Assembly: GCF_003315205.1 (NCBI RefSeq)
Contig: NZ_QNRR01000002.1
Location: 1-64,000, forward strand
Reading direction: 5' to 3'
Source: Roseimicrobium gellanilyticum
GTDB lineage: Bacteria; Verrucomicrobiota; Verrucomicrobiia; Verrucomicrobiales; Verrucomicrobiaceae
Length of the DNA stretch: 64,000 bases
Both the position numbers and the translations under genes were made by a program. A model generated the notes under the pieces. It searched no databases and had not been told where the DNA came from. It was given only the letters and a program-made list of their open reading frames with translations. Shown piece by piece: positions 5,665 to 51,795 of this stretch. The stretch's first letter is position 1. Every line of letters begins with the position of its first letter.

Positions 5665-5852
5665 GCCGAAGGCCTTGGACTGCGGCAGCCTGCTTCCGCT
5701 TTGAAGAGTCCGCAGCCTGCTGCGGCGATGGTGAGTCTGGCTCATGGGATGACGCGTCCTGAAGTGTTTGGCGACTGCGTCGCGATGAAGCGTGCAGCAG
5801 GCTGCACTGGGAGAAAGCGGCAGCAGGCTGCGCGCAGTCCAAGGACGCCGCG
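5665..5852. repeat. Inverted-repeat element, cagcaggctg family, copy 1
   Basis: Left arm begins gccgaaggccttggactgc (5665-5683); the right arm ends with the degenerate complement (5834-5852). Both arms contain cagcctgct/agcaggctg blocks that pair with each other, and the centre is about 60 nt. It fills most of the gap between the lipoprotein gene and the first sulfatase. Confidence 0.8.
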
Positions 5853-33913: not shown

Positions 33914-34452
33914 GCACGAGTCAGTACGCGTGTGACCTCAGTTTACGCCGCCAAAAAAAATGCGCCGGTGGTTCGCCGACGCCCTATAGAGTGAAGCATT
34001 TACGCCGAAGGCGTTGTACATTGCCTAGCCCAAGGTCAGCTTGCGCAGCAAGCGCCACCTTGGGTGGCGGTGAGAAACAGTCGAACGCCGAAGGTGTTCT
34101 ACAAAGACGATCTACCGGTCTGCAGCGTTGTCCGGCCCACCACGCGTTTGTAGAACACCTTCGGCGTTCATGCATGTTCCTGCTGTCCCAGGGTGACGCC
34201 CGCTTCGCGGGCTGACCCTGGGCTAGACAGTGTGCAACGCCTTCGGCGTAGGAGCAGCCGGGAACCGTGATCGCATTTCATTTGGCTTAAAAACCGAATT
34301 GAGAGTTGTTGGTTGAGTGTCGAGAGTCTGAACCCGAACTCTTCACAAACGACCTGGTCTTCACCCGCAAGGTGGATTATTTGGACTCATTCTGCAAACT
34401 CAGTGTCAGGCTATCAACCATCAACAATAGACTATCAACTTAGGGTCTAGGC
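33914..34452. other. Intergenic region with a MITE-like element
   Basis: These 539 bases carry no gene. They contain the 250-bp inverted-repeat element at 34001-34250 and, beyond it, an A/T-rich stretch with imperfect inverted words (gttgttggttgag near 34305 and tatcaaccatcaacaatag near 34415). Confidence 0.65.
34001..34250. mobile_element. MITE-like element with RAYT-type arms
   Basis: Arms 34001-34105 and 34147-34250 are inverted repeats of about 104 nt. Each arm ends in cgccgaaggcg-type words and holds an internal hairpin (cagcttgcgcagcaagcg in the left arm, gcccgcttcgcgggc in the right). The 41-nt centre resembles sequence found next to the left arm of the RAYT-bearing element at 51062-51795 (shared accgg...cgttg...cggcccac words), so it looks like an internal-deletion derivative of it. 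Confidence 0.85.
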
Positions 34453-50699: not shown

Positions 50700-51220
50700 G
50701 GAATGAGCGACCGTGTGGCCGTGGCGTCACGATGGCACATTTCATCCCTCAGCGTGACGGCCACCCACTTGTGGAACACCTACGGCGTTCAAGCTTCTTT
50801 TGCAGCCACCTGGGGTGGCGTCCGCTTCGCGGACTGACCCCAGGCTGGACAATGTTCAACACCTTCGGTGTAGGAGCTTCGATCCGGAGGTGGTCATAGG
50901 GTTCGCAGAGGTTGAGCTTTGGTAGTGCCGTTGTGAGATGGCGATGGGTGATTGTGGGAGAGACGAGGCTTTGCCAAAGTGGCTCACGCTGCCCTCAGCG
51001 TGAACCGTGGCAGTATCCCTGATTCACCATACTCCCAACACCATAACCAAGAAGACGCCCTTACGCCGAAGGCGTTGCACATCGTCCAGCCCAACGGTCA
51101 GCTTGCGAAGCAAGCGCCACCTTGGGTAGCTGATAATGAAACTTGAACGCCGTAGGTGTTCCACAAACGGCTGCCATTCACCGGCATCGTTGCGCAACGT
51201 TCCCGGGCGGCCCACCCGCT
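50700..51220. other. Intergenic region with REP-like arms
   Basis: No gene is seen. The region carries a solo arm (50769-50872) and the left arm (51062-51167) of the RAYT-bearing element, in opposite orientations, with about 190 nt of plain sequence between them. Confidence 0.65.
50769..50872. repeat. Solo REP-like arm of the RAYT family
   Basis: Matches the right arm of the elements at 34147-34250 and 51690-51795: it begins ttgtggaacaccta, has the hairpin gtccgcttcgcggac and ends aacaccttcggtgta. It is the third arm in this area. Confidence 0.8.
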
Positions 51221-51795
51221 TCAATCCCACGCATACCGTTCATCTAACTCCGCGCCGTACTTCTTGCACAAGCGGCGGAACTCATCCTGGAATCCGACCT
51301 TCCGGTGATGCTCCTCTTGATTCCGGATGTACTTGGCCAGCGCATCGATGTGGGACGGGCTCACGGAAAACGCCCCATAACCCGCCTGCCACCGGAAATC
51401 CCGGAGGTTCCGGTTGGTGACCTTGATCCACTTGGTGGTCTCGCGTTTCAAATCCCGCACGAACGCCGCCTGGGACAGGTTCCTGGACAACCGGCAAAAT
51501 ACATGCACATGATCCGCCACCCCGCCGATGACCACCGACGGTGACTCCATGTTCTCACACGCCCCGGCCATGTACGCATGCGTCTCGCGCCGGAACGTGG
51601 CGTCCGTGAGGAAGGTGGCACGCTCCTTCGTGGAGAACACGAAATGCTGGAAATCGCGGCTGATGGATTGGGACATCTTGAGCCGACTTTTTGTGGAACT
51701 CTTTCAGAGTTCAATTAATTTCTCGACCAAACCCAAGGTGGCGCCCGCTTCGCGTGCTTACCCTGGGCTGCACAATGTGCAACGCCTTCGGCGTA
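51062..51795 (-). mobile_element. RAYT-carrying element with inverted arms
   Basis: Left arm 51062-51167 and right arm 51690-51795 are inverted repeats of about 106 nt with the same cgccgaaggcg ends and hairpin cores as the 250-bp element at 34001-34250. The RAYT gene lies between them on the minus strand. The arms are the likely substrate of the encoded Y1 transposase. Confidence 0.85.
51221..51676 (-). CDS. REP-associated tyrosine transposase (RAYT, IS200/IS605-like)
   Basis: A 151-residue Y1 transposase. The HUH metal motif is H56-V-H58 (GVADHVHVF) and the catalytic tyrosine is in LAKYIRNQEEHH (Y116), at the expected distance. The conserved WQAGYGAFSVS segment of RAYTs is present. It nicks and joins single-stranded DNA at hairpins. 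Located inside inverted REP-like arms, so it is probably the enzyme acting on them. Full length; intact motifs. Confidence 0.9.
   Translation of the reverse strand: MSQSISRDFQHFVFSTKERATFLTDATFRRETHAYMAGACENMESPSVVIGGVADHVHVFCRLSRNLSQAAFVRDLKRETTKWIKVTNRNLRDFRWQAGYGAFSVSPSHIDALAKYIRNQEEHHRKVGFQDEFRRLCKKYGAELDERYAWD

What the first reader, a model, noticed from the sequence alone, without database searches (positions are those of the whole stretch)
51062..51795. REP-like arms flank a RAYT transposase, with a gene-less derivative 17 kb away
Arms 51062-51167 and 51690-51795 are inverted repeats around an intact Y1 transposase (HUH H56/H58, Y116). The same arms without the gene form the 250-bp element 34001-34250, whose 41-nt centre resembles the sequence beside the left arm. 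This links a non-autonomous MITE to its likely enzyme within one window. RAYTs are known to associate with REP repeats; arms of over 100 nt and a clear deletion derivative in Verrucomicrobiota look poorly described.
Basis: partly seen in the sequence, partly recalled or inferred. Interest (0 to 1): 0.82.

Follow-up and report, generated by a model that had tools for sequence, protein, structure and literature searches.

The report
Stationary HUH enzyme with three-hairpin arms
A small single-strand-DNA-cutting enzyme of a kind reported to have no partner repeats sits here, and in many of the relatives examined, between two long folded repeats, and copies of those repeats without the gene are scattered in this genome, which points to a likely substrate for the enzyme.

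Summary
The arms, the Y1 gene and the gene-less 250-bp element are real. The interpretation changes in three ways. (1) The enzyme is not a class-2 RAYT: it carries the motifs of TnpAY1 subclass 1.2 (DHVH, WQ, YIRNQEEHH), and fold and tree place it with IS200 transposases. Quentin 2018 lists no REPs for subclass 1.2. (2) All five paralogs in this genome lie between their own ~100-nt inverted arms, each arm three hairpins (small, large, small); in the window's family these show compensatory changes. At the strict threshold, inverted arms flank 27 of 40 sampled genes of relatives and 49 of 78 from seven phyla, against 1 of 17 other Y1 genes and 1 of 1672 shifted positions. (3) The 250-bp element is one of at least 20 gene-less doublets; a deletion origin is not supported. 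In a sister species the four orthologous enzyme loci are in place, while none of 25 elements checked there was found at the site of a same-family element among 35 here. Best reading: a REPIN/RAYT-like system built on another enzyme subclass, with a stationary enzyme and moving doublets. Mobilisation by the enzyme is inferred. One family has arms in the sister species without its enzyme.

The parts
51221..51676 (-). Y1 HUH enzyme gene, 151 aa, motifs of TnpAY1 subclass 1.2 (DHVH, WQAGY, YIRNQEEHH)
   Evidence: motif table read; fold
51062..51167 (+). left arm (outer to inner on + strand)
51063..51075 (+). left arm, outer small hairpin ACGCC-GAA-GGCGT
51090..51126 (+). left arm, middle large hairpin, preceded by CAG
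51145..51161 (+). left arm, inner small hairpin GAACGCC-GTA-GGTGTTC
51690..51795 (-). right arm (outer to inner on - strand)
51782..51794 (-). right arm, outer small hairpin
51732..51767 (-). right arm, middle large hairpin, preceded by CAG
51696..51712 (-). right arm, inner small hairpin GAACTCTGAAAGAGTTC
50767..50872 (-). third, lone arm (half-element) beside the enzyme locus, at the same place in the sister species
34001..34250 (.). gene-less doublet (two inverted arms, ~40-nt centre)
34001..34105 (+). doublet, left arm
34146..34250 (-). doublet, right arm

Best explanation
The window holds one enzyme locus and one gene-less doublet of a REPIN/RAYT-like system whose enzyme belongs to TnpAY1 subclass 1.2. 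Shown by computation: the gene is enclosed by two inverted ~105-nt arms; each arm is three hairpins (small, large, small), conserved as structure in this family; the same kind of arms without the gene form at least 20 doublets in this genome; each of five paralogous enzymes has its own arm type, and four orthologous enzymes in a sister species keep theirs; those four loci are in the same place in both species, while no same-family element was found at a shared site. Inferred: the enzyme, a Y1 HUH nuclease-ligase, binds arm hairpins of its own type on single-stranded DNA (for example at replication forks), cuts and rejoins beside them, and so copies or moves doublets, while its own locus stays put and descends vertically. 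The (T/C)AG often found at the foot of the large hairpin is a candidate counterpart of the GTAG foot or guide of REPs and IS200 ends. Lone arms would be decay products or half-transfers.
For: Arms at five of five paralogs. Arm copies away from the gene for the window family (20 doublets) and for each of the other four families in the own genome (40 of 63 candidates scored; C21 type 3 doublets, C8 type only single-arm hits there). Inverted arms at score 34 or more: own 5 of 5, relatives 27 of 40, seven phyla 49 of 78, other Y1 genes 1 of 17, shifted positions 1 of 1672; with the strict motif pair only, 5 of 5, 23 of 32 and 38 of 62. Three-hairpin detector on either side: 4 of 5, 32 of 40, 61 of 78, against 2 of 17 other Y1 genes and 58 of 1657 single control windows, i.e. 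roughly 7% for two sides. Compensatory changes: 97.2% of cells paired, 11 pairs changed on both sides against 5.0 in shuffles, covariation score reached in 0 of 500. Enzyme-arm fidelity: arm scores 66-157 for orthologs, 10-45 for other pairings; six arms probed in six genomes gave hits only in their own genome among the candidates scored. Stationary enzymes. Doublet turnover. Class-1 fold and tree.
Against: No activity was tested. No empty site is clean enough to give exact ends or a target rule. The sister species has about 12 C9-type arm hits but no orthologous C9 enzyme (at most 41% identity), so an enzyme is not needed for persistence. Four of six genomes probed with their own arm gave only 2-3 hits. 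13 of 40 and 29 of 78 genes fall below the strict arm threshold. Flanks paired across different loci also score higher than shifted DNA (99th percentile 33, maximum 45, n 780), probably because the arms share an architecture. Absence in the sister species may be loss there rather than insertion here.
Confidence: 0.72

Rival explanations
1. The whole armed gene is an ordinary autonomous insertion sequence (IS200-like) that transposes as a unit, and the doublets are its internally deleted MITEs.
For: Gene between inverted ends; enzyme closest in fold to IS200/IS605 transposases; gene-less copies exist.
Against: One copy of each enzyme type in the own genome, paralogs 36-51% identical to the window's; the four loci with an ortholog are syntenic in the sister species; the doublet centre is not significantly like the enzyme locus; arms differ from the small subterminal hairpins given for IS200.
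Confidence: 0.12
2. The arms are host-useful structures (mRNA ends, terminators, nucleoid or repair sites) spread by other means; the enzyme gene merely sits among them or uses them for its own control.
For: Wobble pairs biased to the outer-to-inner strand (23 G.T against 7 A.C cells, 5 of the 7 in a misaligned subtype), which RNA folding would also give; C9 arms without their enzyme in the sister species.
Against: Each enzyme has its own arm type and orthologs keep it; arms adjoin 27 of 40 and 49 of 78 subclass-1.2-like genes but 1 of 17 other Y1 genes; no Rfam family reaches its gathering score in the window.
Confidence: 0.1
3. It is a class-2 RAYT with REPINs, only with long REPs.
For: Same logic of enzyme, flanking inverted repeats, multi-copy doublets and vertical inheritance (PMC8049555 passages); GTAG does stand at the foot of the large hairpin in 10 of 154 detected arms.
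Against: Y---Q--HH instead of Y---NP; 37 of 37 aligned members match the IS200 model (best E 9.5e-24), 16 of 37 also the REP_Tyr_transpos model (best E 3.3e-7); separate branch from 18 non-1.2 proteins, 15 of them with a Y---NP motif; three-hairpin arms.
Confidence: 0.06

Closest known systems
REPIN-RAYT / REPtron systems (class-2 TnpAREP)
   Same: Single-copy, vertically kept Y1 enzyme flanked by inverted palindromic repeats; gene-less doublets of the same repeat in the genome; each enzyme paired with its own repeat type.
   Different: Enzyme subclass (Y---Q--HH, class-1 side of the tree); arms of roughly 85-115 nt made of three hairpins instead of one short GTAG-footed palindrome; the foot is mostly TAG or CAG (68 of 154 detected arms), GTAG in 10 of 154.
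TnpAY1 subclass 1.2 (Quentin 2018, PMC6006769)
   Same: Motifs, length near 150 aa, low copy number, low identity between copies.
   Different: [quoted passage not shown] Here many members have long structured inverted arms, and members were found in Verrucomicrobiota, Planctomycetota, Acidobacteriota and Armatimonadota besides Bacteroidota.
TIRtrons / TIRYTs (Di Nocera 2013, PMC3733652)
   Same: Y1 gene between long terminal inverted repeats, some of them multi-copy (single, dimeric or grouped), some 'double palindromic'.
   Different: According to Quentin 20 of the 26 TIRYTs are subclass 2.1 and the other six 2.2 or 2.5. The GGGGWSAS motif of many TIRs is absent from both window arms and present in 9 of 125 flank sets.
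IS200/IS605 insertion sequences (IS608, ISDra2)
   Same: Fold and catalytic residues.
   Different: No set of near-identical copies in the genome; ends are long inverted three-hairpin arms.

Membership tests
TnpAY1 subclass 1.2 | Tyr motif Y---Q--HH | tested here: met
   YIRNQEEHH; Y116, Q120, H123, H124 invariant in 37 sequences
TnpAY1 subclass 1.2 | DH[IV]H and WQ motifs, median length 148 aa | tested here: met
   DHVH, WQ, 151 aa (table)
TnpAY1 subclass 1.2 | low copy number, low identity between copies in a genome | tested here: met
   5 copies, 36-51% identity to the window's
TnpAY1 subclass 1.2 | no REPs, generally no terminal IS200-type structures (reported properties, not clustering criteria) | tested here: not met
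   structured arms
TnpAY1 subclass 1.2 | match to the published subclass profile | not testable with these tools
   profile not held; only the motif table was seen
RAYT / TnpAREP class 2 | Tyr motif Y---NP | tested here: not met
RAYT / TnpAREP class 2 | groups with class-2 proteins in a tree | tested here: not met
   18 non-1.2 rows lie across a 99/94 branch; 151 of 233 columns used, long branches warned of
RAYT / TnpAREP class 2 | flanking palindromes with a GT[AG]G foot | tested here: not met
   both window arms have CAG before the large hairpin. Elsewhere mixed: GTAG in 10 of 154 detected arms, and in the C9 paralog's arm
REPIN | inverted doublet of a repeat, multi-copy, without gene | tested here: met
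   20 doublets; 12 of 17 aligned doublets pair a GAACGCT-type with a GAACTCT- or GAACCC-type inner hairpin, small variants allowed
REPIN | replicated by the cognate enzyme | not testable with these tools
   needs experiment
TIRtron | Y1 gene between long inverted repeats | tested here: met
TIRtron | GGGGWSAS motif in the repeats (shared by some or the majority of described cases) | tested here: not met
   absent from both window arms; 9 of 125 flank sets
IS200/IS605 | HUH-Y1 fold | tested here: met
IS200/IS605 | near-identical mobile copies | tested here: not met
   one copy of each type; loci with an ortholog are syntenic in the sister species

The most novel reading that the evidence does not exclude
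Subclass 1.2 is a second, separate domestication of IS200-type enzymes into a REPIN-like system, spread over at least five or six phyla. Its substrate is a three-hairpin arm, used as an inverted pair, enzyme-specific in sequence but common in architecture, often with a (T/C)AG foot.
Probability: 0.5. Interest if true: 0.75.

Novelty: new variant of a known kind. Interest (0 to 1): 0.62.

Why it matters
It gives a likely DNA substrate to a group of HUH enzymes reported to have none, and supplies five enzyme-repeat pairs in one genome with four orthologous pairs in a sister species. That makes open questions about RAYT-like systems testable in another branch of the family: what is recognised, why the enzyme stays while doublets turn over, and what happens when an enzyme is missing (the C9 family).

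Tried and rejected
Rejected: deletion derivative; class-2 RAYT; a known RNA family (nothing at gathering thresholds in the window); another armed element at window 5712-5799 (one weak hit, to sequence beside a half-element). The pair of arm ends at C15:17796-18271 (L059) shows no Y1-like protein by eye among its ORFs of 50 aa or more, and one search lists no match there.

Exact boundaries and target: element-free sites were seen, but intergenic DNA of the two species is too diverged for base-exact junctions. The wobble bias is only suggestive, since copies are related. L209 is not listed as a class-2 protein: it is IS200-like (YIADQ) and its place in the tree is unsure.

Limits of counts. Searches did not score every candidate (40 of 47, 40 of 42, 23 of 47 and 23 of 42 for the two main genomes, 40 of 63 and 40 of 67, 40 of 138 and 40 of 136), so copy numbers are lower bounds, and cross-hits among unscored candidates are not excluded. 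Searches dropped 2 of 80 loci (L092, L116) and 3 of 20 non-1.2 loci (L215, L216, L223) for short flanks. The 80 loci are the best 80 of 571 relatives from a capped list found with a motif of this subclass: not a random sample. The 40 genes of relatives are those I chose to fetch from the list. These two sets share 2 identical proteins. Of 125 genes counted as subclass-1.2-like, 101 show both strict motifs. Start codons of the non-1.2 genes were set by a simple rule. The one non-1.2 gene with strong arms, L228, has GTAG-footed repeats as I read the alignment. The tree used 74 of 143 proteins. Phyla were assigned by me from record titles, many of them MAGs.

Shared-site test: elements were masked with 40 nt on each side. 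The remaining hits are short repeats, some of them the unmasked rest of C9-type elements. Two cases have longer matches between elements of different families: G001 4935842 with C4:418395, and G001 4824796 with C8:322944, where one flank aligns close to both elements. I did not follow these up further, apart from the element-free stretch opposite C4:418395. Elements C2:80001, C2:104717, C15:56211 and the window's enzyme locus and lone arm were not among the 35.

Literature: searches listed no paper that, as far as listings and passages show, ties subclass 1.2 to such arms. Seen: PMC3733652 (passages, section 16), PMC6006769 (passages, outline, sections 6 and 12, section 15 part 1), PMC8049555, PMC8266576 and PMC4853749 (passages); PMC3116915, PMC3686654 and PMC2817692 only in listings. 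Figures and supplements were not available, so whether a TIRtron of Figure 9 in PMC3733652 is of this type could not be checked. Bertels 2017 is known to me only through citations in those papers.

Full report
Observation. The window carries a 151-aa Y1 transposase-like ORF at 51221-51676 on the minus strand between two inverted arms, 51062-51167 and 51690-51795, and a 250-bp element 34001-34250 with related arms and no gene. A third, lone arm lies at 50767-50872. The genome (7.93 Mb, 32 contigs) holds 20 full-length gene-less doublets counting this one, 249-264 bp long, plus half-elements. 17 of the 20 went into the alignment.

What the enzyme is. It matches Pfam Y1_Tnp (E 2.9e-20) and scores 53 bits against the NCBIfam IS200 model, just under its cut-off of 55. 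Its motifs DHVH, WQ and YIRNQEEHH and its length fit subclass 1.2 in Table 1 of Quentin 2018 (PMC6006769), not the Y---NP of class-2 RAYTs. An alignment of 37 relatives keeps H56, H58, W96, Q97, Y116, Q120, H123 and H124 invariant. The predicted fold (mean pLDDT 90.8) is closest to ISDra2 and IS608 transposases (Z 16.4 over 108 residues at 2.5 A, and 15.6 over 108 at 2.5 A) and further from TnpAREP (4er8, Z 9.3 over 123 at 3.8 A). A sequence search of solved structures returned eight sequences, all transposases, IS608 among them. In a tree of 74 of 143 proteins the 55 subclass-1.2-like rows and one IS200-like row (L209, long branch) lie across a 99/94 branch from 18 other Y1 proteins of the relatives, 15 of which show Y---NP.

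The arms recur. The genome has five paralogs, and each lies between inverted arms of its own; arms differ between paralogs. I scored the upstream flank against the reverse complement of the downstream flank in larger sets. At score 34 or more, arms flank 5 of 5 own genes, 27 of 40 fetched from relatives and 49 of 78 of the named loci, against 1 of 17 other Y1 genes and 1 of 1672 shifted positions. At 24 or more the numbers are 5 of 5, 29 of 40, 58 of 78, 5 of 17 and 21 of 1672. With the strict motif pair they are 5 of 5, 23 of 32 and 38 of 62 at 34 or more. Upstream and downstream flanks of different loci paired with each other reach a 99th percentile of 33 and a maximum of 45 (n 780), so some likeness is shared between loci. 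By phylum at 34 or more: Planctomycetota 14 of 17, Verrucomicrobiota 17 of 28, Bacteroidota 12 of 24, Acidobacteriota 2 of 4, Armatimonadota 3 of 3, Desulfobacterota 1 of 1 (one MAG contig), Fibrobacterota 0 of 1. The one strong non-1.2 case, L228, has GTAG-footed repeats.

Anatomy. A typical arm is a small hairpin with a three-base loop (often GAA, AAC or AAA), a large middle hairpin, and a second small hairpin next to the gene. A mechanical detector of this order fires on either side of 4 of 5 own, 32 of 40 relatives' and 61 of 78 named-locus genes, against 2 of 17 other Y1 genes; 58 of 1657 single control windows fire, i.e. about 7% for two sides. AGCC lies around the start of the large hairpin in 91 of 154 detected arms, against 12% of 16-nt windows in the same flanks. 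In a narrower window the foot is TAG in 37, CAG in 31 and GTAG (part of the 37) in 10 of 154. In 37 arms of the window family 97.2% of cells pair, 11 pairs change on both sides (shuffle mean 5.0), no shuffle of 500 reaches the covariation score, and sliding the partner drops pairing to 30-48%. So in this family the fold, not only the sequence, has been kept.

Doublets. 12 of 17 aligned doublets pair an arm with a GAACGCT-type inner hairpin and an arm with a GAACTCT- or GAACCC-type one, small variants allowed, which suggests that the pair is inherited as a unit. A subset has an extra outer inverted repeat beyond TACGCC...GGCGTA, by eye. The centre of 34001-34250 is not significantly like the enzyme locus.

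Comparison with a sister species. Contig C2:1-144000 is largely syntenic with G001:C1:4437800-4564900, mostly at 80-90% identity. The window's enzyme locus with its arms and the lone arm is in the same place there, and so are the three other enzymes with an ortholog. The doublets at C2:34001, 100909 and 121191 are missing at the matching sites. In a larger set, none of 25 elements of G001 (19 window family, 6 C9 family) was found at the site of a same-family element among 35 of the own genome; two of them lie near an element of the other family in homologous DNA. C9-type elements at C2:104717 and C4:418395 face short element-free stretches in G001. Insertion here and loss there cannot be told apart for single sites.

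Specificity. Of 38 genomes searched (own included), the window's arm family is abundant in the own genome and G001, gives 1-2 weak hits in three genomes of one neighbouring genus and none in 33, although 31 of the 38 have some match to the paralog alignment. Orthologous enzymes keep similar arms (scores 66-157; other pairings 10-45). Six arms from six named genomes gave hits only in their own genome among the candidates scored. Verrucomicrobium sp. BvORR106 and Terriglobus albidus have many (44 and 70 arm hits, lower bounds), the other four 2-3 each. All four other arm types of the own genome have copies away from their gene.

Against the reading. G001 keeps about 12 C9-type arm hits without an orthologous C9 enzyme, so copies can persist without it; passages of PMC8049555 report fewer but present REPINs in E. 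coli genomes without RAYT. A fair share of subclass-1.2-like genes has no recognisable arms. No chemistry was tested.

Conclusion. The system works like REPIN-RAYT, but its enzyme fails the class-2 tests. It is best filed as a subclass-1.2 enzyme with three-hairpin doublets, a new variant of a known kind. Mobilisation by the enzyme is the most likely mechanism and remains to be shown.

Noticed in passing
G001 (sister species), e.g. C1:999165-999424 and 2616486-2616589: C9-type arms persist although no orthologous C9 enzyme is present: elements after enzyme loss, or cross-mobilisation.
   Followed up: partly
G001:C1:4824796-4825046 and G000:C8:322944-323047: Elements of two different families appear beside one homologous flank in the two species; perhaps the same intergenic site was hit twice.
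   Followed up: no
L059 (G000:C15:17796-18271): Two arm ends in inverted orientation about 420 bp apart without a recognisable Y1 gene between them; a possible decayed element.
   Followed up: partly
L228 (G012:C1:2184700-2187000): A non-1.2 Y1 gene (NHVH) flanked by repeated GTAG-footed palindromes in the same bacterial family, like a classical REPtron.
   Followed up: partly
L126, L072, L122: Some enzyme genes appear flanked by a complete doublet on each side rather than by one arm (folds).
   Followed up: no
L056, L057, L055 and their G001 counterparts: Extra single arms stand beside the orthologous enzyme loci in one species only.
   Followed up: no
G000:C2:69113-80385: An 11-kb stretch with no counterpart in the otherwise syntenic sister region; it contains a C9-type doublet at 80001-80259.
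   Followed up: no
G016:C261, G037:C20, G002:C95, G021:C160: Subclass-1.2-like genes with one in-frame stop, perhaps pseudogenes.
   Followed up: no
window 5712-5799: Similarity to sequence beside a half-element on contig C15; looks like another dispersed repeat, unrelated to the arms.
   Followed up: no
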